Assembly: GCA_021769965.1 (NCBI GenBank)
Contig: JAETRU010000018.1
Coordinates: 1 to 56,324, forward strand
DNA from: Eubacterium sp.
GTDB taxonomy: Bacteria; Bacillota; Clostridia; Peptostreptococcales; Anaerovoracaceae
Reading direction: 5' to 3'
DNA length: 56,324 nucleotides
Positions 9,320 to 56,324 of the stretch are shown one piece after another. Position 1 is the first letter of the stretch, and each line of letters starts with the position of its first letter. Below the pieces are notes generated by a model, which was not told where the DNA came from, searched no databases, and worked only from the letters and a program-made list of their open reading frames with translations. A program made the position numbers and the translations under genes.

Positions 9320-9931
9320 ATGCCAAAAAAACTTTTTTTCAAGCTGCCACCGGAAAAACAGCAGAAGATTTTAGACGCGGCCGCAGAAGAATTTATCGAA
9401 TACAAGGACAACTACAAGAAAAGCAGTGTCAACCGCATCGCAGAAAAAGCCGGTATTGCCATCGGCAGTATTTACAAATATTTCTACGATAAAAATGATT
9501 TATTCATGTATCTGTTCAATCAGCACAAGGTCAGACCTGATTCCCGCCCTGACTCCGATACTTTTTATGCCTATTCTGCCAAGGAAATCACCTCAGAGGA
9601 TCAGTTTACCCCCACAGGAAAACTGCTTCTTGATATCATCAGCGATACACCCGCCCTTTTCCAGGACCTGGTGTTTAAAAGCAAAGATAATGACGATTAT
9701 CTGAACCTGCTGCTCTCTTATATGCAGAACGATAAATCCAGAGGCTATCTGAGAGAAGGCTTAGACGGCGAACTTTCCGCCTACATGTATTCATCTTTGG
9801 AATTTATCGCGTATCAGTACCGTCTGAGCAAAGATTTAGATCCAGCTGAAGAAACAGAAATTTTCCGCAAAATGACCGAACTCTTCTTCTTCGGGCTGTA
9901 CAAAGACGGCATCGAAGATGAGATCAGATAA
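9320..9931 (+). CDS. TetR-family transcriptional regulator
   Basis: A 203-residue TetR-type regulator. The N-terminal ~50 residues hold the helix-turn-helix (ILDAAAEEFIEYKDN... SVNRIAEKAGIAIGSIYKYF), with a helical ligand-binding domain behind it. ATG at 9320 follows AAAGGAGA and is preferred over an in-frame start 16 codons earlier. The gene diverges from the OPT operon, and the perfect palindrome between them is the likely operator. The effector is unknown; a peptide or acylated amino acid would fit the operon. Confidence 0.88.
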   Translation: MPKKLFFKLPPEKQQKILDAAAEEFIEYKDNYKKSSVNRIAEKAGIAIGSIYKYFYDKNDLFMYLFNQHKVRPDSRPDSDTFYAYSAKEITSEDQFTPTGKLLLDIISDTPALFQDLVFKSKDNDDYLNLLLSYMQNDKSRGYLREGLDGELSAYMYSSLEFIAYQYRLSKDLDPAEETEIFRKMTELFFFGLYKDGIEDEIR

Positions 9932-42888: not shown

Positions 42889-44808
42889 TTATAATAAATT
42901 CTTCTTATATCTGATATACAGGTCGCTCAGCTCGTTGGTCTTTCTCTGGATCTCCAGCTGCAGATCTGACGCCAGACCGTACTCGCCTTCATCGAGTGCT
43001 GCCTTGGCTCTGGTGAGCAGACACTTTTCTGTGATCGTGTCCTTGGCTATCTCGTGTCTGATCCTGTCGATCTCCAGCCAGTTTTTAATATCGTAATCAG
43101 AAAAGTCATCCTGAGAATGAGCCTTCTTGCAGCTTCTGATGAAATCCATGGTCTGTGGAATGATCCTGTCGTGAAGCTCTGTCTTCCACTGTGACAGGGT
43201 CTGCTCATGATAAGACGCCAGCACGATGTCCTGCATGACGCCGCCTTCCTTAAAGATCTTCAGTTTCTCCGGGTACTTATCAAAAGCGGTCAGGTTTTCC
43301 CATACCGTAGCCGGAGCCTTGCCGAAGAGGTGCTCCCGCTCCTCCTCTGTGAAATCCTCAAAGACGTCGTCTTCACTGCGGTATTCCCGTTCTGTTTCCA
43401 GATAGAAGTCCGCTTCTCCGCGCTTCTTGGACAGAGATCTCTCCAGCTCGGCAGGTGTTTTGCCCGCCGCCAGCACAGCTTTGATGCCGTCCAGAATAGC
43501 CAGATAAGACGCCGCAATGACCAGATATGTATTGCTCTTCGGGTTAGGCGCTCTCAGCTCAAAGCGGGTAGACATCGGGCTTTTCGGATCTCTGATCAGC
43601 CCTACCAGCACGGTCCTGTTTCTGGACGGTTCATCCACCGCTCTGCCAAGAGAGGTCACGATGCACACCGGCGCTTCGTAGCCCGGCTTCAAACGGTTGA
43701 AAGAATCGTTGGAGGAGCTGACAAAGGGATTGATGACCTCGTAGTTTTTCAGGATGCCCATCAAAGCGCCGTAGCCCAGCGGATTCATAAAGTCCTTCTT
43801 AAAATCTGCCGGGGCAAAGAGGCTGACCATCTTTCCGTTTTTCAGCTTCGCGGCCAGCCCCAGATGGGTGTGCTCGCCGCTTCCCGCCACGCCTTCAAAC
43901 GGCTTGGCCATAAAGGTCACGTCCAGTCCGTACCCGGTGAAGATATCTCTCACCACATACTTGACCTGATTTTCATTATCAGCCGCCTGCATAGCGTCCG
44001 CGTATTTCCAGTCGATCTCCAGCTGCTCCATAACGTGGTCGTAATGGCCGGTATTTCCCATTCTGGCTTTGACGCCGCCGACTTCCTTGTGTCCCATTTC
44101 CACTTCAAAGCCGTATTTGTCCAGGATCATCAGGGTCTCTTCCAGAGCAGTCCGCACTTCGCCGTAGGTTCTCTTCCAATACTGTTCTTTCAGCACCTGT
44201 GCTGTAAACAGCTGCTCCCGGTCGCCTTTGTCATCCGGCGTCTTGACCCAGAATTCCAGCTCGGTGGCGCTGGTGATGACCAGATCCTCGATCTCATCGG
44301 CGCTGTCGATCCCTTTGATATATTCAAAGACATACGGATTGGCCCTGAGCTGCTGGATCAGTTCCTCCTTGAAACAGCGCAGCGCGTCTCTGAGGATAAC
44401 TCTGGAGCCCACCTCGAAATTATCGTTATGGACCAGGAAGGAAGGAATCCGCAGGGTGCCTGTCGGCAATCCTGTTCTATAGCTGATATTGCGGAAGTTA
44501 TAGTCAACATACCAGTGGACGCCCAGATCCGGGATAATGTCCACCTTGGCATTGTTCAGTTCTGCGATCTTCGGCAGAGCAACGCTGGATCCATCGGTCT
44601 GAACACCACAGGACAGCACCTTGTCGATATCATCTAAAAAGGACCTGACTGGAATTTTTTCATCCGTATCGTGTCCGCCGATGTCGATACCGACCAGAGA
44701 TACGAACTGGACCTCCGGATGTTCCTCTAAAATAGCCTTGATTTCTTCGGCAGAATGCTTGTCTGCCGGAATTCTGAACAACATTTTGTCTAAATCGTAG
44801 TCCAGCAT
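42889..44808 (-). CDS. glnA: Glutamine synthetase, long clostridial form
   Basis: A 639-residue enzyme that makes glutamine from glutamate, ammonia and ATP. The catalytic core is type-I-like: EQLEIDWKYADAMQAADN, FMAKPFEGVAGSGEHTHLGLAAK (metal and ammonia site) and MSTRFELRAPNPKSNTYL. About 170 extra residues at the C-terminus are helical and charged and end with a coiled-coil-like stretch; such extensions occur in clostridial forms. The ATG at 44808 follows AAAGGAGGG; an upstream in-frame start 26 codons earlier is unsupported. Confidence 0.88.
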   Translation of the reverse strand: MLDYDLDKMLFRIPADKHSAEEIKAILEEHPEVQFVSLVGIDIGGHDTDEKIPVRSFLDDIDKVLSCGVQTDGSSVALPKIAELNNAKVDIIPDLGVHWYVDYNFRNISYRTGLPTGTLRIPSFLVHNDNFEVGSRVILRDALRCFKEELIQQLRANPYVFEYIKGIDSADEIEDLVITSATELEFWVKTPDDKGDREQLFTAQVLKEQYWKRTYGEVRTALEETLMILDKYGFEVEMGHKEVGGVKARMGNTGHYDHVMEQLEIDWKYADAMQAADNENQVKYVVRDIFTGYGLDVTFMAKPFEGVAGSGEHTHLGLAAKLKNGKMVSLFAPADFKKDFMNPLGYGALMGILKNYEVINPFVSSSNDSFNRLKPGYEAPVCIVTSLGRAVDEPSRNRTVLVGLIRDPKSPMSTRFELRAPNPKSNTYLVIAASYLAILDGIKAVLAAGKTPAELERSLSKKRGEADFYLETEREYRSEDDVFEDFTEEEREHLFGKAPATVWENLTAFDKYPEKLKIFKEGGVMQDIVLASYHEQTLSQWKTELHDRIIPQTMDFIRSCKKAHSQDDFSDYDIKNWLEIDRIRHEIAKDTITEKCLLTRAKAALDEGEYGLASDLQLEIQRKTNELSDLYIRYKKNLL

Positions 44809-44850
44809 ATTGCCCTCCTTTGCATGTTTTTTCTCTATCAGTTTAACGGG

Positions 44851-44888
44851 TTTTGGGACATTGCAGTAACCTCGCGAATGTCCCAAAA
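44851..44888. promoter_or_regulatory. Inverted repeat between UPF0182 and glutamine synthetase genes
   Basis: A perfect 12-bp inverted repeat TTTTGGGACATT / AATGTCCCAAAA with a 14-base centre. It could be a terminator for the UPF0182 gene, although only a weak T run follows, or an operator for glnA. No clear sigma-A promoter for glnA is seen in the gap. Confidence 0.45.
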
Positions 44889-44922
44889 ATCCATTTGTTT
44901 ATTCAGTTCATATCGTTTTCGA

Positions 44923-47805
44923 TCAGCTCAGCTTTTTCAGCGCGTCTTCCAGCTCCTGCATGTACTCTCCGTACTTGGCCCAGTCGCCGTTCTTCAGGGC
45001 TGACTGCGCGTTATCATATGCCTTGGACGCTTTCTGGATCAGGTCAGAGGTCGTCTCAGCGCCGCCTTCCTGACCTTCGCCGCCGCTGGCAGGCGGTTTT
45101 TGATCGTTGCCGCTGGTACCGTCGCCGAACAGAGCGTTCAGCGCTTCGTCCAGGGTCGCCTCATACGCGATCTTATCGTCATAGGCGACGATGACCCGCT
45201 TCACCTCCGGGATCGCGGAGTTCTCCGCTTCCAGATAAACAGGCTCTACATACAGCAGTGAAGACTCGATCGGAATAACGAAGAGATTTCCTCTCTTGTA
45301 GGAAGAACCCTTGGAACTCCACAGGGTGAAGTCACTGGATATCTCCGTGTTCTGGTTGATCTGGGCTTCGATCTGCATCGGTCCGTAGATGGTCTTGCTC
45401 TTCGGGAACTGATACAGGATCAGCTCGCCGTAACGGTCTCCGTCATTTCTTGCCACCATCAGAGCTGTCATATTCTGCTTGGATTTCGGCGTATACGGGA
45501 TAGAATTGATAAATTCCGCGTCCTTCTCGCCCGGAAGCTTCGCTACATAATAGTTCGGCTCCATGACCTGCTGATCCTTGCCGTAGATCTCGTTGGCGAT
45601 ATCCCAGACGTCCTCGTTCTGATAGAATACTTTCACGTCTTCCATGTGGTAACGGCTGTAGACATTGGCCTGGATCTGGAACAGCGTGTTCGGATATCTG
45701 ATATGCGCCTGCAGGCTCTCCGGCATCTGATCCAGAGACTTGAACAGCTTCGGATAGATCTTCTGATAGGTCATGGCGATCGGATCGTTCTCATCCACTA
45801 CATAGAAGCTGGTATCGCCGTTGTACGCATCTACCACTACCTTCACGGAGTTTCTGATGTAGTTGGTGCCGCCGATCTTTCCGGCATACGGCTCAGAGTA
45901 TGGATAATAGGAACTGGTGGTATAAGCGTCCATCATCCAGTAGACCTTACCGTCAACAACTACGGTATACGGATCGTTCTCGTAGCTGAGATACGGCATG
46001 ATCCTCTGCACTCTGTCCACAACATTTCTGTTGATGATGATCTTGGAATCGCTCTTGATATTGGAGGATACCAGGATCTTCATGCTGCGTTCTCTGATGG
46101 AGAAGAGGATCCTGTTAAACAGGTTCATCTTGATTCCCGCCGTACCTTCGTACTGGGTATACTTATTGGAACTGCCCTCAGGATAGTCGAATTCATCCTC
46201 GCTGGTGTTTACCATGATGTAGTCGTTGGAAAGCTCGCCGAAGTAGATCTCCGGACGATCCACTTTGATCTCATCCACTGTGGATTCAGGCGGAATATTC
46301 TTGATCAGCACATCAGGCTGTCCGCTGGCGGTCACGGAGTCTACTCTTGACAGAGTGATACCGTAGCCGTGGGTATACTTCAGATGCTTGTTCAGCCATG
46401 TCTGATTGATCTTCTCTTCGTCGATCTCTCTTGTTGAAAGATAGGTCTGTGTCAGCTCGCCGTTGACCATGTATCTGTCTACGTCTACGTCGTTGAACTT
46501 ATAGTACTGACGGATACTCTGGGTCTGGTTGTAGAACGTGTTGACCGGCTGATAGTCGTTGATACGGATATTGTTGATCGTCTCCGGATTGGCCTGAATA
46601 TCTTCACTGCTCAGGTTGTTATCAGCCGCAAAGGATTTCTCCTCCACATCGTTAAGCTGATACGCGTACTGCGTATATTCGATATTGCTCTTCAGATATT
46701 TTGACTCTTTGTTGATCTCGTCAGGAGATACGATAAAGCTCTGTACCAGGTAGCTTGCGCCGATGCCCACAGCGCCGATAACGATCATGATCACCGGAAT
46801 GGTCAGGATCTTCTTAAACTGCTTCTTTCTGATATGGTGCACGACAGTCACCGCTCCCAGAAGAGCCAGTACCGCCAGCACTCTGTAAACCCACAGAGTA
46901 ATATTGACATCGGTAAAACCTGCGCCGTATACAGCTCCCGTATGGGCGTGGAGCAGATCAAACTGCTTCAGAACGAAGTTCAGCGCGATCATGACAAAGA
47001 AGATGACGCCCAGCAGGGACAGCTGTCCGCTGGCGATCCCCATCAGCTGTTTGAAATTATTGTCATCCAGCTGTTTTTTCTTCTTCGGCGGAGCCTGAGA
47101 AGGTCCTTTCTTTCCGAACGCGCCGAAGATCTTATCGAACGGATTGTTTCCGCCGATACCCTCGAACGGATTTCCGCCGCCGGTATATCTGTCCTCTTCA
47201 TCACCATAATAAGTGGTCTCAGACGCGTCCTCATCATCGTGTTCGAAGATGTCAGGACTGTGCATGGTCAGCAGAATGGTATAGTAGACCACGGTAACGA
47301 TGATCAGAAGCAGTACTACGCCGATAAACATCTCGTTCAGCTGCTTCAGGAAATCCAGTTTAAAAATGTAAAACGAAATATCCAGATTAAAGATCGGATC
47401 CTTGATATCAAAGTCCGTCGCATTGGCATACTGCAGGATCTCGAACCACAGGTTGGTCACGGCGTAGAACGCGGTCACCAGGCCGAACACCAGTGAAATG
47501 ATCACTGTATAGCGGTTCAGCTTCTTCATGTCTGTCGCCTCGTGGGAAGCGATCTTGGCAAAATAGCCTTTTTTCAGTCGTCTCAGGTACAGATTGACCA
47601 GAAATGACAGGATAACGAACACAGGTATTCCTACCTTCAGCTCGGTAAACAGCTGTTTAAAGAATACGCTGACATATCCCATTTCCTTGAACCATAGCCA
47701 GTCCGTGATGAAGTTGATCAATAGTAAGAATAATCCTAAGATGATAACGATAAACAACACGATCACGCTAAGGCGTCTCTGCCCTTTTGCATTGCTGTTA
47801 CTCAA
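44923..47805 (-). CDS. UPF0182-family membrane protein
   Basis: A 960-residue protein with seven or so N-terminal transmembrane segments (residues 1-360) followed by a large domain presumably outside the membrane, and a Gly/Gln-rich linker before a short C-terminal helical region with AYDNAQSALKNGDWAKYGEYMQELEDAL. This matches UPF0182, a widespread family of unknown function in Gram-positives and cyanobacteria. The start codon is TTG, five bases after AGGAGGAG; no in-frame ATG is nearby. It is the third gene of an operon with a zinc-ribbon protein and a small membrane protein. Confidence 0.88.
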   Translation of the reverse strand: MSNSNAKGQRRLSVIVLFIVIILGLFLLLINFITDWLWFKEMGYVSVFFKQLFTELKVGIPVFVILSFLVNLYLRRLKKGYFAKIASHEATDMKKLNRYTVIISLVFGLVTAFYAVTNLWFEILQYANATDFDIKDPIFNLDISFYIFKLDFLKQLNEMFIGVVLLLIIVTVVYYTILLTMHSPDIFEHDDEDASETTYYGDEEDRYTGGGNPFEGIGGNNPFDKIFGAFGKKGPSQAPPKKKKQLDDNNFKQLMGIASGQLSLLGVIFFVMIALNFVLKQFDLLHAHTGAVYGAGFTDVNITLWVYRVLAVLALLGAVTVVHHIRKKQFKKILTIPVIMIVIGAVGIGASYLVQSFIVSPDEINKESKYLKSNIEYTQYAYQLNDVEEKSFAADNNLSSEDIQANPETINNIRINDYQPVNTFYNQTQSIRQYYKFNDVDVDRYMVNGELTQTYLSTREIDEEKINQTWLNKHLKYTHGYGITLSRVDSVTASGQPDVLIKNIPPESTVDEIKVDRPEIYFGELSNDYIMVNTSEDEFDYPEGSSNKYTQYEGTAGIKMNLFNRILFSIRERSMKILVSSNIKSDSKIIINRNVVDRVQRIMPYLSYENDPYTVVVDGKVYWMMDAYTTSSYYPYSEPYAGKIGGTNYIRNSVKVVVDAYNGDTSFYVVDENDPIAMTYQKIYPKLFKSLDQMPESLQAHIRYPNTLFQIQANVYSRYHMEDVKVFYQNEDVWDIANEIYGKDQQVMEPNYYVAKLPGEKDAEFINSIPYTPKSKQNMTALMVARNDGDRYGELILYQFPKSKTIYGPMQIEAQINQNTEISSDFTLWSSKGSSYKRGNLFVIPIESSLLYVEPVYLEAENSAIPEVKRVIVAYDDKIAYEATLDEALNALFGDGTSGNDQKPPASGGEGQEGGAETTSDLIQKASKAYDNAQSALKNGDWAKYGEYMQELEDALKKLS

Positions 47806-47816
47806 TTTTTCTCCTC

Positions 47817-49448
47817 CTAAATTTTCTTGACGGCTACGATCTTCATAGCCTTTTCATCCGGCTCCACATACACCACATGCTCTTCCTGTTTTTCCTTCTT
47901 CTTGCTGTCTACAATAGTAACAGATGTCCGCACGTAAAAGCCGGTGCTCCCCACCCGGATCTCTCCAATAGCGAGGCGGTTCATGCCGTATTCCAGATCC
48001 TCGTCTCCTTCCAGAGCTTCGATCTCCTCGTAGAAGTCCGAGGTTTCGTCGATGACTTTCAGAACCTCTTTGTTTTTTCCATTTATTTTATCTATCCAGG
48101 ATGAATAGTACTGGACCAGCGTACCGACCAGTTCCTGGCCGTAGGTCACATCGACGCCGTCTTCGGTATACCACGGTTTGTCATCAAAGGTATAGGCGTT
48201 GCCGAAATCTTCGAATCCGTAGTCTTCTCCGTCGGCAAAGGTCAGCGTCTGATCTTCCTCAATCAAAGCGATATTTTTTCCCTGATCCTTCTGGGCGCTG
48301 ATCAAAGCGGCCAGAGGGGATTCCTGTTCCTGCGGCTCATCAGCCGGCTGGCTGTCTTCACTGCCGTCATCAGCGCGGAACAGATCCATAACGGTCCCAT
48401 AAGCTTTGTTGATGGTCTTTGCCGCCTCTGAATCCGGAGCAAAGTACTGGATACCGATCACTGCCAGTTCCGCCGCTACCAGGATGCATAATATTATGGC
48501 GATAACCTTCAGGGCTTTCCCTTTCTTAGGGCTTTCATCAGGATCATCATCGCCAAACACGTCATCAAAGGTAAGCTTATGCGTTTCTTCGCTGGGGGGC
48601 CGAACCTCGCTCTTCGCGGCAGGTTCCGCACCTTTCACCTCTTTCGCGGCAGGTTCCGCTTCCAATGATTCTGCAGCAGCTGCCATAACGCCCTTCGGCG
48701 CCTGTGACAGCACTACCCCCACAAACTCCAGGGCCACTTCTTCTTTTTCTTTACAGGGGGGATTCTCCGGCTGGCTGCCGGCCTCCTGTGCGTCGGACGC
48801 ACTGTCCTGCCCCGGCTCTGACTTTTCAAGCAGATCACTTATGACCTGCTCCGGGCTGCGTTCATCTCCCGCGCCCGCTGCCGGCGGCTCTTCTTCCGGT
48901 TCCTCACCGGTCTTCAGTTTCTCATACTCTCTGTCCAGCATAGCCTGCAGAGCTTCATTTTTCTTATTATACGTATAGAATTCTGTTCTGGTCTCTTTAT
49001 GTCCGAGGATCCTGGTCGGTTCCTCGTTATCTGCCGCCTTGCCCTCATCCAGGCTTCCCATATCGGCAAAGAGAGCTTCTTCCAGAGATTCTCCTTCCTC
49101 CGTGCCGTCTTCAGCCTCTGCTTCTTCTGCCCGCGGCGCAGTCTCTGATTTTGGTTTTCCATAAAGGTCCTGACGTTTCTCCTCTAAGACGGAAGACCAG
49201 TTAAAGTCCACGTCCTCTGTCTTTTTCCGGGCTGTCGGGTAGCCTTCCAGATCCCAGTTAAATTCTTCTATATGAAATTTCCTCTTTGGCCGTTCCTCAG
49301 GCTGCGGCGCCGCCCGGTTCAGTGGAGCCTCCTTCTGCGGTTCTTCCATCCGGAAGGCCGGTACGAAATCCTCTGTGACTCTGGTACCGCAGTTACTGCA
49401 GAACTTATCACCCTCGTCCAATAACTTGCCACATTTCTTACAATACAT
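47817..49448 (-). CDS. Zinc-ribbon membrane-anchored protein
   Basis: A 543-residue protein of unknown function. The N-terminus is a zinc ribbon (YCKKCGKLLDEGDKFCSNCG). A long acidic, Glu/Ala/Pro-rich stretch follows with two FNW motifs at residues ~60-85. One transmembrane helix (VIAIILCILVAAELAVIGI) lies near residues 315-340, and a C-terminal domain of about 190 residues follows it. The arrangement resembles zinc-ribbon proteins that place a sensor or enzyme-like domain outside the cell. Start at 49448 is set by the zinc-ribbon Met-Tyr-Cys. It is co-transcribed with UPF0182. Confidence 0.75.
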   Translation of the reverse strand: MYCKKCGKLLDEGDKFCSNCGTRVTEDFVPAFRMEEPQKEAPLNRAAPQPEERPKRKFHIEEFNWDLEGYPTARKKTEDVDFNWSSVLEEKRQDLYGKPKSETAPRAEEAEAEDGTEEGESLEEALFADMGSLDEGKAADNEEPTRILGHKETRTEFYTYNKKNEALQAMLDREYEKLKTGEEPEEEPPAAGAGDERSPEQVISDLLEKSEPGQDSASDAQEAGSQPENPPCKEKEEVALEFVGVVLSQAPKGVMAAAAESLEAEPAAKEVKGAEPAAKSEVRPPSEETHKLTFDDVFGDDDPDESPKKGKALKVIAIILCILVAAELAVIGIQYFAPDSEAAKTINKAYGTVMDLFRADDGSEDSQPADEPQEQESPLAALISAQKDQGKNIALIEEDQTLTFADGEDYGFEDFGNAYTFDDKPWYTEDGVDVTYGQELVGTLVQYYSSWIDKINGKNKEVLKVIDETSDFYEEIEALEGDEDLEYGMNRLAIGEIRVGSTGFYVRTSVTIVDSKKKEKQEEHVVYVEPDEKAMKIVAVKKI

Positions 49449-49467
49449 AAATGCCTCCTGCATGAAT

Positions 49468-49980
49468 CTATTCTCTGATCTGGTCGTTTAATTCCTCAAG
49501 TGTATAGTATTTCCCATTCTTGGACACAGCGCAGTCCCTGCTGAAATATTTCCGCACAGGCTGCGCGTCTTTCTTTTCGTCATTCTCCTGTGTCCCATCT
49601 GCCTCTTCTGCCGCCTCTGATACTTCTACAGGTTTCTGTTCCTCCTGCCCGGCGTCATCTGACGCGTGATCTGACGCATCATCATCAGGCTTCGCGGTCT
49701 CAGCCGTTTCTTCCTCCGCTTCCTGCGGGCGCGTGTCGGCACCGCCTCTGTTATCTATGTACACCACGCCTTTCTGCTTATCATTGATGCTGCTGACGGC
49801 GGTGTTGATCTGGGTCACCGTATCATTGATCTGGGAGAGCAGCTCCCGCTTTTTGCGGCCAGCGCGAACAATGCGCCCGATAAAGATGATCGCCGCTATA
49901 GCTAAAATGATGATGAAGGCGATCTCTATCTCATCCTGATATTTCCACATGAATTCTGCCAGTTTACCGAACATATTCAT
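49468..49980 (-). CDS. Small membrane-anchored coiled-coil protein
   Basis: A 170-residue protein with one N-terminal transmembrane helix (AFIIILAIAAIIFIGRIV), a short heptad-like helical segment (LLSQINDTVTQINTAVSSIND) and a long acidic, disordered middle ending in a conserved-looking C-terminal motif (KNGKYYTLEELNDQIRE). I do not recognise the family. It is the first gene of the UPF0182 operon, with its own strong promoter. ATG follows AGGAGG; a second ATG two codons later is possible. Confidence 0.7.
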   Translation of the reverse strand: MNMFGKLAEFMWKYQDEIEIAFIIILAIAAIIFIGRIVRAGRKKRELLSQINDTVTQINTAVSSINDKQKGVVYIDNRGGADTRPQEAEEETAETAKPDDDASDHASDDAGQEEQKPVEVSEAAEEADGTQENDEKKDAQPVRKYFSRDCAVSKNGKYYTLEELNDQIRE

Positions 49981-50008
49981 CCGCGTTTCCTCCTAACGTA
50001 TTCTATTT

Positions 50009-50037
50009 ATTATACAATAAATCCTTCCTCTTGGCAA
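50009..50037 (-). promoter_or_regulatory. Promoter of the UPF0182 operon
   Basis: On the minus strand TTGCCA (50032-50037), 17 bases, TATAAT (50009-50014), about 29 bases before the ATG. Confidence 0.78.
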
Positions 50038-50100
50038 ATCGAAATGGCTGTTTTTTGTGGTTTTTGTGAAATTCCAGGGTAAAAATCGGAGAAAAGTTCC

Positions 50101-50125
50101 AAGAAAAAAGAGCCGATCCCGGCTC
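50101..50125 (-). terminator. Terminator of the Lys/Asn-rich small gene
   Basis: GAGCCG-GGAT-CGGCTC on the minus strand, directly followed by TTTTTT. It lies 54 bases beyond the small ORF and just before the promoter of the next operon. Confidence 0.8.
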
Positions 50126-50178
50126 CCGTTGTCAGCTCTTTCCTCTCTTCGTGCTGGAACACGTACGATTTACATGCT

Positions 50179-50301
50179 TTAGTACTCGTTCTTTTCGGTC
50201 TTGTTCCAGTTATTTGCCTTGTCACAGTCCTTCTGGCTGTTCTTCTTGCTGTTGTTCTGCTTGTTCTTGCTCTGGTTTTTCTGGTTGTTTTTCTTATCCA
50301 T
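50179..50301 (-). CDS. Very small Lys/Asn/Gln-rich protein (40 residues)
   Basis: A 40-codon ORF, starting MDKKNNQKNQ and ending NKTEKNEY, preceded by a perfect AGGAGG eight bases before the ATG and followed by its own terminator. It is extremely polar: about half the residues are Lys or Asn, with one Cys and one Trp. No hydrophobic segment or known domain is seen. The composition recalls small acid-soluble or nucleic-acid-binding peptides of Firmicutes, but no family is assigned. Signals for translation and termination make it a real gene rather than chance. Confidence 0.7.
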   Translation of the reverse strand: MDKKNNQKNQSKNKQNNSKKNSQKDCDKANNWNKTEKNEY

Positions 50302-50401
50302 TTTTCATCCCTCCTCGCATAAGTATTGTGTGCAGAGACGCGGGAAATATAATTGGAAAAAGTTGAAGGCAGCTGCGGTCACTATACACAGTTTTCTTCC
50401 A

Positions 50402-50430
50402 TTTACTTTTTTACCGGGGTGTACTACAAT
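50402..50430 (+). promoter_or_regulatory. Promoter of the AEC transporter gene
   Basis: TTTACT (50402-50407), 17 bases, TACAAT (50425-50430) with TG upstream of the -10 box, 40 bases before the ATG. Confidence 0.55.
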
Positions 50431-50469
50431 AGAAAGAAGATATTTTAGAAAAGGACAGACTGACAGATT

Positions 50470-51441
50470 ATGCTGAACAACTTACTATTTTGCCTCAACG
50501 CGACGATCCCCGTTTTTTTGCTGATGATCCTGGGACTGCTCTTCATGAAGCTGCATATTTTTGACGATATCTTTGTAAAAAAGCTGAACGCTTTTGTATT
50601 TAAGGTCGCCCTGCCGGTGCTGGTGTTCTACGATCTGTGCAAGGAGGATTTCTACGCGGTTTGGGACACCAGATACGTGCTTTTCTGCTTCTTTGCCACT
50701 CTGCTGTCCATCGGGCTGACTGTAGCCATATCTTTCACACTGCGGGACAAGTCTGTTCAGGGAGAGTTTATTCAGGTGGCTTACCGGAGCAGCGCCGCTA
50801 TCATGGGCGTGGCTCTGGTACAGAATCTCTACGGGGACTCCGGCATGACCCCGCTGATGATCGTCGGCTCCGTGCCCCTTTACAATATCTTCGCCGTCAT
50901 CGTGCTGTCAGTCTTCCAGCCGCAGACCGGTCCGCAGAGCTGCCAGCGCAGCCATAATTCTGCCCGCGGGCAGCTGGCAGCCACAGCAAAAGGCATCGTG
51001 ACCAATCCGATCCTGATCGGCGTGCTTGCCGGCCTGGTCTGGTCCCTGCTGCAGATCCCCCTGCCCCCTGTCGCAGACAAGACGCTGGAAAGCGTGGCCT
51101 GGGTCGCCACCCCGCTGGGACTCATGGCCATGGGCGCTGCTTTTGACATCAAAAAAGCCCTGTCGGGCATACGCACTGCCGGACTGGGCGCTTTTATAAA
51201 GCTGATCGGCCTCGGCTGCATCTTTCTGCCTGTCGCCGTAGCTCTGGGATTTACCGGGGACAAGCTGGCAGCCGCTCTGATCATGTGCGGATCTCCGACC
51301 ACCGTCAGCTGCTATGTCATGGCAAAGAACATGGGCCACGAAGGTACCCTGACCAGCAGCACCGTCATGCTGACCACATTCTTCAGCGCCTTCACTTTGA
51401 CCGGATGGCTGTTTCTGCTGAAAAGCCTGGGACTGCTGTAG
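50470..51441 (+). CDS. AEC-family transporter (auxin efflux carrier type)
   Basis: A 323-residue membrane protein with ten or so helices. It has the AEC-family N-terminus (ATIPVFLLMILGLLFMKLHIFDD), KLNAFVFKVALPVLVF, YRSSAAIMGVALVQNLYG and the C-terminal MCGSPTTVSCYVMAKNMG. Bacterial members export or exchange malate, malonate or amino acids. The substrate cannot be set from sequence and the gene is not in an operon. A convergent small gene begins nine bases past its stop. Confidence 0.85.
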   Translation: MLNNLLFCLNATIPVFLLMILGLLFMKLHIFDDIFVKKLNAFVFKVALPVLVFYDLCKEDFYAVWDTRYVLFCFFATLLSIGLTVAISFTLRDKSVQGEFIQVAYRSSAAIMGVALVQNLYGDSGMTPLMIVGSVPLYNIFAVIVLSVFQPQTGPQSCQRSHNSARGQLAATAKGIVTNPILIGVLAGLVWSLLQIPLPPVADKTLESVAWVATPLGLMAMGAAFDIKKALSGIRTAGLGAFIKLIGLGCIFLPVAVALGFTGDKLAAALIMCGSPTTVSCYVMAKNMGHEGTLTSSTVMLTTFFSAFTLTGWLFLLKSLGLL

Positions 51442-51449
51442 GGAATCGT

Positions 51450-51659
51450 TCAGTTTATGCCGCCCAGCGAAAGCAGCTTCAGTATCCGCCGGTAAAGATG
51501 ATCCAGCCAGCCGCCCAGCATCGACTCTTCATATGCATCACCAGTATAAAAGGATTCCCATCTGTCCAGATCATGATACATGCAGATCTGCCTGATCAAA
51601 ATGACGATAAGCAGAATGATGATCACGATCTTCAGTCCGCATCTGATCTTCTTATTCAT
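51450..51659 (-). CDS. Small single-pass membrane protein (69 residues)
   Basis: A 69-residue protein with one N-terminal transmembrane helix (LKIVIIILLIVILIRQICMY) and a basic/acidic tail. No family recognised. Its ATG overlaps the end of the preceding small gene by eight bases (ATGAATAA), with AGGAGAAG in front, so the two are translated together. It is the last gene of the secreted-protein locus downstream of the LytTR-type promoter. Membrane location and pairing would fit an immunity or accessory role, but this is speculation. Confidence 0.65.
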   Translation of the reverse strand: MNKKIRCGLKIVIIILLIVILIRQICMYHDLDRWESFYTGDAYEESMLGGWLDHLYRRILKLLSLGGIN

Positions 51660-51858
51660 CTTCTTCTCCTAACGCGTCAGACATGATATAATTTAGATCT
51701 TCCACCTGACGAACTGCTTTTTCGTGGAAAGCATCAATCGCATCCCTGGTTTTCTGCTGTTGTGACTCGATCATAAACTGCATGATCAGGATCGCGGCTA
51801 TCAGCACCGCCACCGCGATATGCCATACGTTGTCAGCTGTAATCTTATGTTTTTTCAT
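51652..51858 (-). CDS. Small single-pass membrane protein (68 residues)
   Basis: A 68-residue protein with one transmembrane helix (HIAVAVLIAAILIMQFMI) followed by a helical, charged tail (SQQQKTRDAIDAFHEKAVRQVEDL). No family recognised. GGAGG stands ten bases before the ATG. It is 74 bases downstream of the second secreted protein; an inverted repeat (51886-51920) lies in the gap and may partly end transcription. It overlaps the next small membrane gene. Confidence 0.68.
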   Translation of the reverse strand: MKKHKITADNVWHIAVAVLIAAILIMQFMIESQQQKTRDAIDAFHEKAVRQVEDLNYIMSDALGEEDE

Positions 51859-51885
51859 ATTAGCTTGCCTCCGTTAAATTAATGT

Positions 51886-51920
51886 TGCTTCATCTTGGTT
51901 TAAGAACGCAGAATGAAGCA
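51886..51920 (-). other. Inverted repeat between second secreted gene and small membrane genes
   Basis: TGCTTCAT (51886-51893) and ATGAAGCA (51913-51920) form an 8-bp stem. No long T run follows, so it is more likely a processing or attenuating hairpin than a strong terminator. Confidence 0.4.
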
Positions 51921-51932
51921 GCACAAACCTTT

Positions 51933-52820
51933 CTATACAGCCTTTGGAACTATCTTCCCATTTTTCGGACTAAGTTCTTTCACACCTGAGTTAAAAACAA
52001 CCGCAGGTGTTATACCATTCGCACTCACTGAAAATGAAGGGCTAACGGTTAATTGCGTATGTCCGTATGCTACATAGTAGTAAAAATCTTTCATAGCATG
52101 TACATCGGATTTCAACTTGAATGTTACTTGACCATTTTTTGCAAAAAGATTTGAACTGGTTGGTACTACAGGAAATTTATACCCTGCTCCCCCAATTCCT
52201 CCCGATGCCGATGATGGCGAAATTTTAGTTCCAGAACGATTTTCCTTATATGCATGACTTGTCATATCAAAATACCTTATTGAACTTGAACGGCTAGTGA
52301 TTGACCACCCATTCCATCCAACCGCCACTATATCATTTGACTGTGCTAATGGTTTACCATCCCATTCCCAACCAAATTCAAAAGTGCCTTTTGTGTACCT
52401 ACTTTCTAGCGGCTGGCTTTTATCATATTCAAATGTAGCAATTCTCACTCTCAAGGAAAGCGTGGCAGAAAGCGCATATAATTCAGCTTCGCTCCCCTTG
52501 AAGTCGCGTATCATTTCTATCTGTTCTTCACTATATCCAAAATCATAGAGCACTTCATCATCTAGTTCATCCAACTTTTCAATGTGCTCAATATATCTTT
52601 GACGATAATCTTTAATCTCAGTAATTTCCGCCTTCGTGAACCCCTCTCTCTCAAGCTGTGCTTCGCTTTCCTTGGCCAATTCTTTCATGACTGAATACTC
52701 TTTACTAACCGTAGTATCTGAAATATCCATTGGTTCACTGCTATCATTTGCATATGCAAAAGTAGGCATTCCTATAATAGTCAACATTAAGCTTAATGTT
52801 ATAGCACAAATTTTCTTCAT
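51933..52820 (-). CDS. Secreted protein of unknown function B (295 residues)
   Basis: A clear N-terminal signal peptide (MKKICAITLSLMLTIIGMPTFAYA, cleavage near residue 24) is followed by an acidic helical region of about 90 residues with two similar segments (LEREGFTKAEITEIKDYRQRYI and LYDFGYSEEQIEMIRDFKG). The C-terminal ~170 residues are beta-rich, Ser/Gly-rich and aromatic, ending in a repeated hydrophobic/polar pattern. No catalytic motif, Cys or cell-wall anchor is seen. I do not recognise the family. It is the second secreted gene behind the LytTR-controlled promoter; whether it has its own promoter is unclear. Confidence 0.75.
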   Translation of the reverse strand: MKKICAITLSLMLTIIGMPTFAYANDSSEPMDISDTTVSKEYSVMKELAKESEAQLEREGFTKAEITEIKDYRQRYIEHIEKLDELDDEVLYDFGYSEEQIEMIRDFKGSEAELYALSATLSLRVRIATFEYDKSQPLESRYTKGTFEFGWEWDGKPLAQSNDIVAVGWNGWSITSRSSSIRYFDMTSHAYKENRSGTKISPSSASGGIGGAGYKFPVVPTSSNLFAKNGQVTFKLKSDVHAMKDFYYYVAYGHTQLTVSPSFSVSANGITPAVVFNSGVKELSPKNGKIVPKAV

Positions 52821-52892
52821 ACCAATTCACCATCCTTTTAACATATAAATAAATGAATTCAAATAGTATAAATCTGTCTTTAGGTTACTATA

Positions 52893-52931
52893 CTATTTTG
52901 AGAAACTCTTTTTCACTTTATCCGCTCTCAT
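52893..52931 (-). CDS. Tiny ORF (12 codons) with a strong ribosome site
   Basis: ATG-AGA-GCG-GAT... encodes MRADKVKKSFSK and stops at TAG. AGGAGGTGAT, one of the best ribosome sites in the window, lies seven bases ahead. It sits in the 157-bp gap between the two secreted protein genes, so it is on the same presumed transcript. It may be a leader peptide, a small basic peptide product or a degenerate gene start. It lacks a signal peptide, so export as a pheromone would need another route. Confidence 0.4.
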   Translation of the reverse strand: MRADKVKKSFSK

Positions 52932-52977
52932 AAGCATCACCTCCTCAATAAACCCTCTAACTCCACTTTTCTATCAT

Positions 52978-53790
52978 CTACGCAATCCTCGTCAGGCTCC
53001 ACGCATGACCAACTTCGATTCTTTTGCCCGCCTTATCATGGGCTAGATACTTCACCGCAGTGTCTAATTTATACTCTCTAACATCCGTTGTTTTCCCATC
53101 ATTTATTTTCACCGTATACTCACAATACATATTCACGTCAGATGCGCCCGGTGTTCTCGCAACACCATCAGTAATTTGGGGATTTTTCCAAGTTATTGTC
53201 CCTATTACTTTTTTCAGATTGCCACCTGGGACCCCTTTATTTTCATCAATTCCCGAGGAGGAAACCTTATAATGGTTTTCCAAGCTTAAGGTGACGCTTC
53301 CCACCTTGCAATCCACCGTAGCGGTCGCGGTGAAGTAGCGATTGCCGTAATCCTTCCACATTTCACTGCTTCCGGAAGTTGCCAGAGGCATAATCGAAAT
53401 TCCTTTACTACTACCTTCAGCACGGTCTTCTAATTCCACCCGCAGTATGCAGTTATCACCCAAGTCATATTCCTTTGCCGCATAGGCTCTGCCACCCGGC
53501 AAATTTTTCAGCGTCATATCTTCACTGCCTTTTAAGATTTCCTCCGCCGCATCCAGTTTCCCACCGATCAGCGCTGCAACTGCCTCGTCTGTTGTCTGTG
53601 CTAACAACGCTTCCTTCTCGGACATTGTCATCGGACCGTCTTCCATGCAAGCATTTATCCCTGTCTTCAGCTGCTCTGCCGTTTCAATAGGTCTGATGTC
53701 ATTCATTACTGTCTCTGCAAAAGCAGGAGCTGTCATAGTTATCATTATTAAAGATAAATTTAATATTAATATAATTATTTTCTTGTTCAT
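52978..53790 (-). CDS. Secreted protein of unknown function A (270 residues)
   Basis: A signal peptide (MNKKIIILILNLSLIMITMT, cleavage after APAFA near residue 22) precedes a helical region (residues ~25-85: a run such as MTMSEKEALLAQTTDEAVAAL) and a beta-rich C-terminal half with one Cys in TVDCKVGSVTLSLENHY and one in MYCEYTVKIND, possibly a disulfide pair. No known domain recognised. The ATG at 53790 follows AAAGGA; an ATG three codons upstream overlaps that site. It is the first gene downstream of the second LytTR-box promoter, and so the most direct output of the two-component system. Confidence 0.75.
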   Translation of the reverse strand: MNKKIIILILNLSLIMITMTAPAFAETVMNDIRPIETAEQLKTGINACMEDGPMTMSEKEALLAQTTDEAVAALIGGKLDAAEEILKGSEDMTLKNLPGGRAYAAKEYDLGDNCILRVELEDRAEGSSKGISIMPLATSGSSEMWKDYGNRYFTATATVDCKVGSVTLSLENHYKVSSSGIDENKGVPGGNLKKVIGTITWKNPQITDGVARTPGASDVNMYCEYTVKINDGKTTDVREYKLDTAVKYLAHDKAGKRIEVGHAWSLTRIA

Positions 53791-53837
53791 ATATATCATC
53801 CTTTCATTTTTTAATTTTTCACTCTATTTCTATATCC

Positions 53838-53866
53838 AACATATCACGCCTTCCTATAAATTGCAA
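53838..53866 (-). promoter_or_regulatory. LytTR-controlled promoter of the secreted-protein genes
   Basis: On the minus strand TTGCAA (53861-53866), 17 bases, TATGTT (53838-53843) with TG one base before. The twin LytTR sites end 10 bases upstream of the -35 box, the same layout as at the response-regulator promoter. Confidence 0.75.
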
Positions 53867-53876
53867 GAATTTTGCG

Positions 53877-53905
53877 ACGAACGGTCGAAATTTGCGACGA
53901 ACGGT
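53877..53905 (-). promoter_or_regulatory. Twin LytTR binding sites, secreted-gene copy
   Basis: Two exact ACCGTTCGT nonamers (53877-53885 and 53897-53905), 20 bp apart, on the minus strand. Each fits the LytTR/AgrA consensus [TA][AC][CA]GTTN[AG][TG]. They lie in a 46-bp block (53862-53907) repeated exactly at 56111-56156. Confidence 0.82.
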
Positions 53906-53947
53906 CATTGACAACAAAAATAACAGCGCTTTCTCCCCAATTTAAAA

Positions 53948-53967
53948 GAGACAGTCCTCACTGTCTC
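53948..53967 (-). terminator. Terminator behind the sensor kinase gene
   Basis: On the minus strand GAGACAGT-GAGG-ACTGTCTC followed by TTTT, about 35 bases after the kinase stop. It insulates the regulator/kinase transcript from the next LytTR promoter. Confidence 0.88.
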
Positions 53968-54001
53968 CGTCAAAATCACTATATATTTCAAGACTGCCAC
54001 C

Positions 54002-55294
54002 CTATACCGGAATCATAATCTCTGTCACCACCTGCCCGTTCTCTTCACGCCAGGTTATACTTCCGCCGGCTCTTCGGGCAGCTTCCGTCATATTGCGTGT
54101 TCCCAGGCCATGATTTCTCTTATCATCACTATTTGTTACAGGAATACTGTTTCTTAACTCCAAGCTCTCACAACAGGAATTTCTGACCGATATGAAGAGA
54201 AAATGTTCTCCATCATTCTCGATAGAAACTTCGATTCCCCTGTTTCCTCTGCATTTTCGTGCCGCGTCATAGGCGTTCTTAAGTCCATTGGAAAGAATAA
54301 TACAGAGATCCGTTTCCGCAATCAGCAGATGATCAGGGAATTTTCCATCTACCGACAAAAAGATTCCCGCCTCTCTGCATAAACTCTCATAGCGATTGAA
54401 AATCGCATCCCCGATGACGTTGTTGGAGCTGATGAAACGCAGGCTTTCCTCTACCACATTTATCTCATCCAGATAGCTGAGCACCCGCTGTGCCGAATCA
54501 GCTTCTGCCAGCTTGCGAATCACAGCAAAATGCTCCTTGTGATCATGCCGGAACCTGCGCAGCTCCATATCCGTCTTTCCCTGCAGCTGATACTGCTCCG
54601 TCTGCTCTTGAATGCACTTTTCATTAAAGAGGATCATACGCCGCAGTTCCTTTCTCTGGTTGACCAACACTAAGCAAATCAAAAAGAACGCTAGAATAAT
54701 CAGGCCTGTAATACCATTTTTAATTAAATTCTCACCAAAAGTAATCTGTGCTCTCTCATTAAAAATATCACCAAAGTACCATGAGTTATAATGTATAATA
54801 ATAGCACAAAGCAAAAAAGGTACAAACGAAAAAGGATTCATTTGTTCAGTGAGCTGATATAAATTTATCTTTTTCTGATTTAAAATGACTGTCAATCCCA
54901 GGATAATAATGCTTGTAAAAACAAGTCCCCCTACATAGGTCATGGAAGGATCTAAGGTATCTGTTTTTCCCTTTAATGCAATGATACTCCCGCCCCAGCA
55001 CAAATACTGCATCAGTTCAAACACCACATCCATACACAAGCCGATGCCCAGCACCACCAGCTTCCGTCCCTGAAAGCACAGCACTGGGATGACTACAGGT
55101 ATTATTTTCCACAGGATATTCAACTCCCAGAGCATGTCACTTGATAACAGGAAAAATCCGGCGTAGTGAAAGACCGCCAGCAAGGCAGCTACCGCCAGAG
55201 CCGAGCGGTTTGTCCGAAAACTGTAGCCCAGAAGCACCTTAAACAGCAGAAACATATTGATCAGTTCCAGTGTAAATCCTATATTCCCCAGCAT
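54002..55294 (-). CDS. AgrC-like sensor histidine kinase (HPK10 type)
   Basis: A 430-residue kinase with six or seven transmembrane segments in the first ~210 residues and no large outside domain, as in peptide-sensing AgrC/ComD/PlnB kinases. A coiled-coil linker leads to the phosphoacceptor region ELRRFRHDHKEHF, followed by a GHKL ATPase with ILSNGLKNAYDAAR and RNHGLGTRNM. It stands 18 bases downstream of the LytTR response regulator. The ligand is unknown; no AgrB protease or AgrD peptide gene is seen in the window, although upstream sequence ends at an IS. Confidence 0.88.
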   Translation of the reverse strand: MLGNIGFTLELINMFLLFKVLLGYSFRTNRSALAVAALLAVFHYAGFFLLSSDMLWELNILWKIIPVVIPVLCFQGRKLVVLGIGLCMDVVFELMQYLCWGGSIIALKGKTDTLDPSMTYVGGLVFTSIIILGLTVILNQKKINLYQLTEQMNPFSFVPFLLCAIIIHYNSWYFGDIFNERAQITFGENLIKNGITGLIILAFFLICLVLVNQRKELRRMILFNEKCIQEQTEQYQLQGKTDMELRRFRHDHKEHFAVIRKLAEADSAQRVLSYLDEINVVEESLRFISSNNVIGDAIFNRYESLCREAGIFLSVDGKFPDHLLIAETDLCIILSNGLKNAYDAARKCRGNRGIEVSIENDGEHFLFISVRNSCCESLELRNSIPVTNSDDKRNHGLGTRNMTEAARRAGGSITWREENGQVVTEIMIPV

Positions 55295-55312
55295 AGCCGC
55301 CTCCTGAATCCA

Positions 55313-56014
55313 TTAGATATACCGAGTATACCTTCTGCAATAGTCTTTAAATCTCTCAAAGCACTCCGTCCTCCGCCGCCTGCTGGGTTCTGCGGTCTCA
55401 CCGTTTTTCAGCCTGATCACAGGGCCGTCAAAGGCTTTGATCTGCCTGCAGTTTAGGAGACAGGATTTACTGATACGAATAAAGCCCTGCTGTCCCAGCA
55501 GTTCTTCCCAGCTTTGAAGACTTCTGCGAAGCCACTGTTTCTTTGTTCCATCGGCAAAGACGGCCTCCGTCAGCTTCCCTTCTGCACGGATCAAGACCAG
55601 ATCCCGGCTGCTGACTACGCTGCCATCCTCAAACTCAACAGGAAAATCCCTGTGCAAAAGCTTGTAAGCGCTGCAGAGCCTCTTCTGAAAAAACTCCCAC
55701 TGCACCGGCTTTGCCAGGAAGCCGATCACATTGGCGCCATAGGCCTCCGGCATCATTTCATCATGACTGCTTACAAAGATGATCAGCGGCTTCTCCTGTC
55801 CAAAATAGCTATCTTTGACTCGGATACCATCCATCTCAGGCATCTCAATATCCAACAGCAGCACATCGGGCGGTTCTTCCTCAGAGAGCAGCCGCGGGTC
55901 AGAAATCCCTTTGATCTCCACGTCCACCGCATTCTCCTTTGCAAAACGCCTGCATAGTTCGGTAAGTGTCTCTATTTCCAGTAACGAATCATCGCATATC
56001 GTAATTTTTATCAT
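55313..56014 (-). CDS. LytTR-type response regulator (AgrA/ComE-like)
   Basis: A 233-residue response regulator. The receiver domain has the acidic pair (ICDDS), phospho-aspartate in VLLLDIEMPEMDG, and the FVSSHD and FLAKPV signatures. A C-terminal LytTR DNA-binding domain (RDLVLIRAEGKLTEAVF ... FIRISKSCLLNCRQIKAF) follows. Such regulators bind direct repeats like those at 53877-53905 and 56126-56154. It is first in the operon with the sensor kinase, and the sites on its own promoter imply positive feedback. Confidence 0.9.
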   Translation of the reverse strand: MIKITICDDSLLEIETLTELCRRFAKENAVDVEIKGISDPRLLSEEEPPDVLLLDIEMPEMDGIRVKDSYFGQEKPLIIFVSSHDEMMPEAYGANVIGFLAKPVQWEFFQKRLCSAYKLLHRDFPVEFEDGSVVSSRDLVLIRAEGKLTEAVFADGTKKQWLRRSLQSWEELLGQQGFIRISKSCLLNCRQIKAFDGPVIRLKNGETAEPSRRRRTECFERFKDYCRRYTRYI

Positions 56015-56045
56015 ATTATCTATCCAGAAATCCTTTCCTGCACTT

Positions 56046-56075
56046 ATTATACAGCAAAGGGATACGCGATGTAAA
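56046..56075 (-). promoter_or_regulatory. Second, LytTR-independent promoter of the regulator/kinase operon
   Basis: On the minus strand TTTACA (56070-56075), 18 bases, TATAAT (56046-56051), between the LytTR promoter and the response regulator ATG. It could supply basal expression. Confidence 0.6.
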
Positions 56076-56086
56076 TACCTGCTTCC

Positions 56087-56115
56087 ACCATAGCACCGAT
56101 GAGGCCCGTGTGCAA
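56087..56115 (-). promoter_or_regulatory. LytTR-controlled promoter of the regulator/kinase operon
   Basis: On the minus strand TTGCAC (56110-56115), 17 bases, TATGGT (56087-56092) with TG one base before. The LytTR nonamers end 10 bases upstream. Confidence 0.75.
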
Positions 56116-56125
56116 GAATTTTGCG

Positions 56126-56154
56126 ACGAACGGTCGAAATTTGCGACGAACGGT
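56126..56154 (-). promoter_or_regulatory. Twin LytTR binding sites, regulator-operon copy
   Basis: Two exact ACCGTTCGT nonamers (56126-56134 and 56146-56154) on the minus strand, 20 bp apart, in a 46-bp block identical to that before the secreted genes. Confidence 0.82.
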
Positions 56155-56208
56155 CAATAGTGCTAGACTAGAAAGTGGACAGGAGTTTTGAGAAATTCTT
56201 CCGTGTGA

Positions 56209-56323
56209 TATAATCCCGTCTTTGACAGCCAAATCATGCAAAAAACCGTCAAACTACTGCAATTAGTAGCTTTGGCGGTTTTCTTAATTGACACAATTTG
56301 TAGCATTTTTTCTACTTTTTTGT
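56209..56323 (-). mobile_element. End of an insertion sequence, right copy (partial, inverted)
   Basis: Reverse complement of bases 1-115 with one mismatch. It contains the same ORF end (stop at 56284-56286) and the same terminator (56242-56282). The element thus points its 3' end into the window from both sides. It lies about 50 bp upstream of the LytTR sites of the regulator operon. Confidence 0.7.
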
Positions 56324-56324
56324 G

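What the first reader, a model, noticed from the sequence alone, without database searches (positions are those of the whole stretch)
51450..53790. Unrecognised secreted-protein locus as dedicated output of a peptide-type two-component system
Behind the second LytTR promoter lie two signal-peptide proteins without recognised domains, a 12-codon ORF and two overlapping single-pass membrane proteins. Both secreted proteins share an order of parts (signal peptide, acidic helical segment, beta-rich C-terminal half), so they may be distant relatives. A gene set of exported effectors plus small membrane partners under AgrC/AgrA-like control recalls bacteriocin or surface-factor loci, yet no known bacteriocin, ABC exporter or immunity family is seen. 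It may be an undescribed exported system.
Basis: partly seen in the sequence, partly recalled or inferred. Interest (0 to 1): 0.75.

Follow-up and report, generated by a model that had tools for sequence, protein, structure and literature searches.

The report
Swappable secreted-protein cassette behind Agr-like sensor
A bacterium related to gut Emergencia carries a sensor-and-switch gene pair followed by one conserved secreted protein, an exchangeable secreted protein and small membrane proteins, which looks like an undescribed weapon-and-protection locus, though no activity has been shown.

Summary
No curated Pfam or NCBIfam cut-off is met by SP1, SP2 or the small proteins. SP1 and SP2 align only in their signal peptides. 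New here: (1) SP1 is the constant partner: RR-HK-SP1 recurs in 11 of 18 other SP1-family loci. (2) The gene after SP1 varies: SP2-type, other unknown secreted proteins, once an RHS-repeat protein. In one pair, regulator and kinase DNA is 85% identical but the cargo differs, similarity ending at the cargo signal peptide. (3) Displaced 3' ends of SP1 lie downstream in two loci. (4) One close pair has a replaced kinase sensor. (5) AgrB was found in 0 of 9 such genomes (42 of 101 phylum genomes have it), so an ordinary Agr cyclic peptide is unlikely. Best reading: a Sec-secreted, bacteriocin-like antagonism locus with exchangeable cargo. Activity, ligand and immunity are inferred; a test for sensor-SP1 coevolution found none.

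The parts
55313..56014 (-). response regulator, receiver + LytTR DNA-binding domain (AgrA-like)
   Evidence: Pfam Response_reg 1.8e-11, LytTR 6.5e-10
54002..55294 (-). histidine kinase: six hydrophobic N-terminal segments + GHKL ATPase (AgrC-like)
   Evidence: HATPase_c_5 7.1e-19; hydropathy
56111..56156 (-). operator before the regulator: two direct repeats, 20-nt spacing; next to -35-like TTGCAC (56110-56115), 17 nt, -10-like TATGGT (56087-56092)
   Evidence: 46-nt exact repeat; 16/16 repeat, 0 of 200 shuffles; hexamers read by eye
53862..53907 (-). same operator before SP1; next to -35-like TTGCAA (53861-53866), 17 nt, -10-like TATGTT (53838-53843)
   Evidence: hexamers read by eye
52978..53790 (-). 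SP1: constant secreted protein (signal peptide, acidic helical part, beta-rich C-terminal part)
   Evidence: family of 19 distinct loci including this one; AlphaFold pLDDT 69.5, pTM 0.68
52893..52931 (-). 12-codon ORF with strong Shine-Dalgarno; not conserved as a peptide
52861..52898 (-). intercistronic stem-loop (11-bp stem) where some relatives have a stronger hairpin
   Evidence: here not above shuffles (z -0.18); L029/L028 z -4.21/-3.75
51933..52820 (-). SP2: exchangeable secreted cargo (signal peptide, helical part with two GYTxxEI-like units, beta-rich C-terminal half with YGH motif; secondary structure from the alignment and a poor model)
51652..51858 (-). 68-aa single-pass membrane protein, immunity-like candidate
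   Evidence: relative follows SP2 in L029, 48% identity
51450..51659 (-). 69-aa single-pass membrane protein, overlaps the former by 8 nt
   Evidence: relative in L029, 44% identity over 43 residues

Best explanation
The locus is a self-contained, Sec-dependent antagonism (bacteriocin-like) module. The AgrC-like kinase senses an extracellular signal and phosphorylates the LytTR regulator. The regulator binds the 20-nt-spaced direct repeats before its own gene and before SP1, giving positive feedback and secretion of SP1 plus the cargo (SP2) through the general Sec route. The small membrane proteins at the end of the gene row protect the producer. SP1 is the fixed partner of the sensor system. 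The cargo and its membrane partner are exchanged as a cassette by recombination between the SP1 3' end/intergenic region and the cargo signal peptide. Shown by sequence: gene order, operators, conservation, cargo exchange, sensor polymorphism, no AgrB found. Inferred: promoter activity, one transcript, signal, secretion, toxicity and immunity.
For: Exact operator copies only in this locus. RR-HK-SP1 in the same order and strand in 11 of 18 other SP1 loci, and in 11 of the 11 that have both regulators. Repeats at 20-nt spacing before SP1, at most 1 of 200 shuffles as good, in 8 of 12 loci, window included. L028 and L029: DNA 85% identical over 2041 bp of regulator+kinase and 80% over 935 bp from within SP1 into the cargo signal peptide, then no match; the two cargoes share only 25 residues. 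L028-type cargo (34% identical) also stands in L030, whose kinase is only 44% identical to that of L028, against 83% for L028/L029. Displaced SP1 3' ends: 197 bp at 91% in the own-genome paralog L030, before a second cargo; 87 bp at 97% in L034, near a 562-bp duplication at 99%. RHS-repeat protein (RHS_repeat 7.5e-31, DUF6531 8.7e-13) next after SP1 in L100. Small membrane proteins downstream of cargo in loci read. SP2-type proteins elsewhere have recurrent small membrane neighbours: L071/L072 47%, L044/L045 44% identical. Sensor polymorphism: L034 vs L041 kinase blocks 80-100% identical outside, 10-55% within the sensor.
Against: No SP or cargo protein reaches a toxin, bacteriocin or immunity family cut-off (sub-cut-off only, e.g. 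L037 cargo to Colicin_Pyocin E 0.021, 15.3 of 21.2 bits, and L031 cargo to JUQZ_fam_ocin E 0.022 over the signal-peptide end). No activity data exist. Seven of 18 other SP1 loci have no regulator pair in the DNA held (L099, L040 and L103 have under 1.5 kb on one side). The RHS case is a single locus. 13 of 14 SP2-type loci not behind SP1 show no such regulators (four of the 14 have under 1.1 kb on one side), the exception L076 being weak (E 4e-6 and 3e-7). The number and type of small membrane proteins vary, so immunity is a guess. SP1 has no fold match.
Confidence: 0.5

Rival explanations
1. SP1 is the signal: a Sec-secreted protein pheromone (or the source of one by proteolysis) read by the linked AgrC-like kinase; the cargo is the response. 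It can be true together with the antagonism reading.
For: AgrB found in 0 of 9 genomes with such loci but in 42 of 101 phylum genomes. SP1 is the gene next to the kinase in all 11 other loci with the pair (in L030 two genes lie between). In L028/L029 one 20-residue SP1 block falls to 45% between blocks of 100% and 75%, while three kinase-sensor blocks fall to 45%. The sensor is replaced between otherwise near-identical L034/L041.
Against: A partial Mantel test over 9 loci gives no excess correlation of sensor identity with the SP1 C-terminal part (r 0.06, p 0.37) or N-terminal part (r 0.17, p 0.19). L028/L029 kinases have another low block (55%) outside that stretch. The C-terminal part of SP1 in L041 is not held. 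SP1 occurs without the pair in up to seven loci. Genes beyond the contig end (310 bp upstream of the regulator) are unseen.
Confidence: 0.25
2. Host- or surface-directed secreted factors: SP1 and SP2 are wall-associated or shed proteins for colonisation, diversified by immune or phage pressure, with small membrane proteins as assembly partners.
For: No toxin domain; a beta-rich C-terminal part in SP1; variable cargo would also fit antigenic variation.
Against: No LPXTG-type wall anchor seen by eye. The RHS protein in the same slot and the displaced-cassette pattern recall conflict systems.
Confidence: 0.2
3. Envelope-stress response: the kinase senses antimicrobial damage, and SP1, SP2 and the membrane proteins protect the envelope.
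For: An autoregulated kinase/regulator pair with small membrane proteins resembles some antibiotic-sensing modules (recalled).
Against: Complete replacement of cargo behind an 85%-identical regulator/kinase pair is not expected for a protective function with one target.
Confidence: 0.1

Closest known systems
agr quorum sensing (AgrC/AgrA, Staphylococcus and clostridia)
   Same: GHKL kinase with polytopic sensor, LytTR regulator, direct-repeat operator at own and output promoter, variable sensor (agr side recalled)
   Different: no AgrB found in any of nine genomes, hence no AgrB-made cyclic peptide expected; in this genome exact operators lie only before the regulator and SP1
blp/com-type regulated class II bacteriocin loci (recalled)
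   Same: LytTR regulator, exchangeable effector + small membrane immunity-like genes
   Different: Sec-type signal peptides on proteins of 270-295 aa instead of double-glycine peptides; no ABC exporter noticed by eye among the ORFs of 44000-56324, the genome was not searched for one
Geobacillin 26 / alicyclobacillin 24 class III bacteriocins (PMC13176240, passages seen)
   Same: Sec signal peptide, about 240-300 aa
   Different: those have a predicted C-terminal membrane helix; SP1 and SP2 have none by hydropathy; the paper's main text mentions no immunity or two-component gene (0 occurrences)
Polymorphic toxin systems (PMC3482391, abstract start in search listing only)
   Same: cassette replacement, displaced 3' remnants, variable effector followed by small genes, an RHS member in the slot
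   Different: exchange is at gene level just after the cargo signal peptide, behind a constant separate secreted protein, not within one large toxin

Membership tests
agr quorum-sensing system | AgrC-like GHKL kinase with polytopic sensor | tested here: met
   HATPase_c_5 7.1e-19; six hydrophobic segments
agr quorum-sensing system | LytTR regulator with direct repeats before own and target genes | tested here: met
   binding itself not testable
agr quorum-sensing system | AgrB peptidase | tested here: not met
   0 of 9 genomes (two are 73% and 82% complete); the method rings in 42 of 101 phylum genomes
agr quorum-sensing system | AgrD precursor next to the kinase | tested here: inconclusive
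   none noticed by eye in the ORF lists read; no dedicated search; the contig ends 310 bp upstream of the regulator
class II bacteriocin locus | small peptide with double-glycine leader | tested here: not met
   SP1/SP2 are 270 and 295 aa with Sec-type signal peptides; the 12-codon ORF is not conserved
class II bacteriocin locus | dedicated ABC exporter | not tested
   none noticed in 44000-56324; only seven of its proteins were scanned and the genome was not searched
class II bacteriocin locus | immunity protein | not testable with these tools
   small membrane proteins present; protection needs an assay
Geobacillin 26 family | sequence match to the family | tested here: inconclusive
   no NCBIfam family over cut-off for SP1/SP2; whether the library holds such a model was not checked
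Geobacillin 26 family | C-terminal membrane helix | tested here: not met
   only the signal peptide passes in SP1 and SP2
polymorphic toxin system | variable effector behind a constant part, with displaced remnants | tested here: met
   the constant part is a separate gene here
polymorphic toxin system | recognised toxin domain | tested here: not met
   none over cut-off in SP1, SP2 or in ten cargo-slot or related secreted proteins; an RHS-repeat protein in one locus only

The most novel reading that the evidence does not exclude
An AgrB-less Agr-like circuit in which a whole Sec-secreted protein (SP1) is the cognate, polymorphic ligand of the kinase, and which works as a standing platform: sensor and SP1 alleles diversify together while effector/immunity cassettes are swapped in behind SP1 at the signal-peptide junction. 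This would be a protein-pheromone quorum system driving exchangeable antibacterial effectors of unknown families.
Probability: 0.2. Interest if true: 0.85.

Novelty: new variant of a known kind. Interest (0 to 1): 0.62.

Why it matters
It would define a bacterial competition module with effectors of no known family and without the Agr peptide machinery. It raises a testable question: what does an Agr-type kinase read when no AgrB is encoded? The exchange junction also gives a simple rule for finding further unknown secreted effectors: read whatever lies behind SP1.

Tried and rejected
SP1 and SP2 as relatives: rejected. The 12-codon ORF as pheromone: rejected. In 11 intergenic regions a Shine-Dalgarno+ATG ORF of 1, 5, 6, 7, 12, 14 or 15 codons is found in seven and none in four (L029, L030 after the full SP1, L034, L036); only the second L030 copy resembles the window's, MRVDKMKKSFSKKVQ. 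The letters shared with L028/L029 run in another frame there (read by eye), so what is shared looks like nucleic acid, perhaps a hairpin: z -4.21, -3.75, -2.04, -1.04, -2.61 in L029, L028, L030, L031, L032 and -0.18 here. Rfam: no match at gathering threshold in 50400-56324.

Sensor-SP1 coevolution: the formal test gave nothing. Structure: SP1 model moderate, best Foldseek E 0.035 with TM-scores 0.14/0.17, i.e. no match; SP2 model useless (pLDDT 37.6). Solved structures by sequence: nothing credible. Plasmids (SP1, SP2) and phages (SP2 only): no match. Viral contigs: one SP1 relative, L082, the same DNA as part of L102; none for SP2 or the SP2-type protein of L071.

Dropped before counting: L042 (E 6.2e-5, inside a 704-aa ORF) and the G399 match (E 6.3e-5, model positions 4-104 of 266). 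Secondary SP1 fragments in L030 and L034 were counted with their loci. L033 = L028 and L029 = start of L104 were counted once. An earlier count said 13 of 19 loci with regulators; the recount is 12 of 19 with the window, 11 of 18 without it.

Full report
ANATOMY. The window is the whole contig C65 of a 2.99-Mb, 82-contig genome. The two named relatives fetched with such loci are Emergencia sp.. On the minus strand stand, in order: a LytTR response regulator (56014-55313), a GHKL histidine kinase with six hydrophobic segments (55294-54002), SP1 (53790-52978), a 12-codon ORF (52931-52893), SP2 (52820-51933), and two membrane proteins of 68 and 69 aa overlapping by 8 nt. A 46-nt element is repeated exactly before the regulator and before SP1. 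The four perfect 15-mer half-sites of the genome are in these two copies. Read by eye, each copy adjoins a -35-like hexamer with a 17-nt spacer to a -10-like hexamer, the place where LytTR activators are known to sit (established knowledge).

SP1 IS THE CONSTANT PARTNER. SP1 relatives occur in 15 of 349 genomes of the family and 5 of 13 of the genus, own genome included in both. Of 299 genomes drawn across the phylum, two matched: the own one, and one weak match to the N-terminal part only. These searches give 19 distinct loci. Among the 18 other than the window, 11 have regulator and kinase upstream on the same strand, always in the order RR-HK-SP1 (L028, L030, L031, L032, L034, L036, L037, L041, L100, L101, L104). 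Seven have neither in the DNA held (L035, L038, L039, L040, L099, L102, L103), of which L040, L099 and L103 have less than 1.5 kb on one side, and L103 is a remnant of about 36 SP1 residues. This genome has eight LytTR domains, so adjacency by chance would be rare (inference). It holds three paralogous loci (C65, C38, C21), with different operator letters. The C38 version occurs at two places, both in C38, plus one 3-mismatch site on C80; the C21 version was not searched across the genome.

OPERATORS. In 24 upstream regions of 12 loci (window included) I scored the best 16-mer direct repeat at 19-22-nt spacing. Fourteen reach a score met by at most 1 of 200 mononucleotide shuffles: eight before SP1, six before the regulator. 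L034 and L041 are near-identical and not independent. One of the fourteen (L036, regulator side) is an unrelated AT-rich repeat, and that of L036 before SP1 lacks the GACC start. GACC-type pairs at 20 nt are visible by eye also in weaker cases (L031, L037, L032 regulator side, and with one deviating half in L101 before SP1). Neither L100 region, nor the regulator regions of L028 (137 bp held), L036 and L101, shows a convincing one. The SP1 start of L101 was set approximately.

CARGO IS EXCHANGED. After SP1 stand SP2-type proteins (window, L029, L036), another type (L028, and second position of L030, 34% identical), other secreted-looking proteins (L030 first position, L031, L032, L034, L037) and an RHS-repeat protein (L100, 167 bp after SP1). 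L028 and L029 are the key pair: regulator and kinase DNA 85% identical over 2041 bp, then 80% over 935 bp from within SP1 through the intergenic region into the cargo, and the similarity ends 75 nt into the cargo, at the end of the signal peptide. L028 and L030 share the cargo type although their kinases are 44% identical, against 83% for L028/L029. In L030 a second, 91%-identical copy of 197 bp from the SP1 3' end stands before the second cargo. In L034 an 87-bp copy (97%) stands near a 562-bp duplication (99%). Such displaced ends are what cassette insertion leaves (inference). SP2-type matches occur in 15 of 299 phylum genomes at E<=1e-4 (own included), several covering only the N-terminal end. 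Of 14 such loci not behind SP1, one (L076) has a weak regulator/kinase match nearby. Small membrane neighbours recur in L071/L072 and L044/L045.

SENSOR POLYMORPHISM AND THE MISSING PEPTIDE. In L034/L041 the DNA is 99% and 97% identical on either side of about 470 bp of the kinase gene without a DNA match. At protein level 20-residue blocks fall from 80-100% to 10-55% in the sensor. In L028/L029 three sensor blocks fall to 45%, and one other block to 55%; SP1 has one block at 45% between blocks of 100% and 75%. AgrB is found in none of nine such genomes (two are only 73% and 82% complete). The same search finds it in 42 of 101 phylum genomes; its 14 built-in control genomes gave one sub-cut-off hit. 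The signal is thus probably not an AgrB-made peptide, and SP1 is the gene most constantly linked. But a partial Mantel test over nine loci finds no specific sensor-SP1 link (r 0.06, p 0.37), so the ligand reading stays a hypothesis.

STRUCTURE AND LITERATURE. The SP1 model (four sequences, pTM 0.68) shows a helical N-terminal part and a beta-rich C-terminal part, with no Foldseek match at E<=0.001. Eight paper searches listed no paper whose title or abstract start describes such a locus. I saw passages of PMC13176240 and PMC8895600, and otherwise listings only. The library is open-access only, so 'undescribed' is limited to that.

VERDICT. The most likely function is regulated, Sec-dependent antagonism with swappable cargo. 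Toxicity, immunity and the signal are not shown.

Noticed in passing
G000 C80:329-364 (L106:329-364): A fourth operator-like pair (3 mismatches to the C38 version) with promoter-like hexamers, but no SP1 or evident secreted gene behind it; perhaps a remnant of a lost locus.
   Followed up: partly
window 52861-52931 and intergenic regions of L028-L032: A Shine-Dalgarno+ATG mini-ORF (seven of 11 regions) and a hairpin lie between SP1 and cargo in several loci; ORF length 1-15 codons, so perhaps an RNA control or mRNA-stability element.
   Followed up: partly
L030:5198-6696: Two genes inserted between kinase and SP1 in the own-genome paralog; they look like an AbiE-type pair (recalled, not searched).
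   Followed up: no
L101 (SP1 near 9340-9570): SP1 loses similarity after its WK motif behind an intact regulator/kinase pair: apparently a degraded locus.
   Followed up: partly
L028 (signal peptide of SP1): An in-frame stop lies in the SP1 reading frame of this genome near its start; its cargo frame also appears split.
   Followed up: no
L076:4188-9514: In another family a weakly similar kinase/LytTR-type pair stands beside two secreted-looking proteins, one SP2-type, with small membrane proteins nearby.
   Followed up: no
L099: Two tandem SP1-like proteins (360 and 315 aa) behind a multi-pass membrane protein that looks like a CAAX-type protease (recalled, not searched).
   Followed up: no
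L035:9598-10080: A DUF3990 protein (3.7e-50) close to an SP1 gene that has no regulator pair in the DNA held.
   Followed up: no
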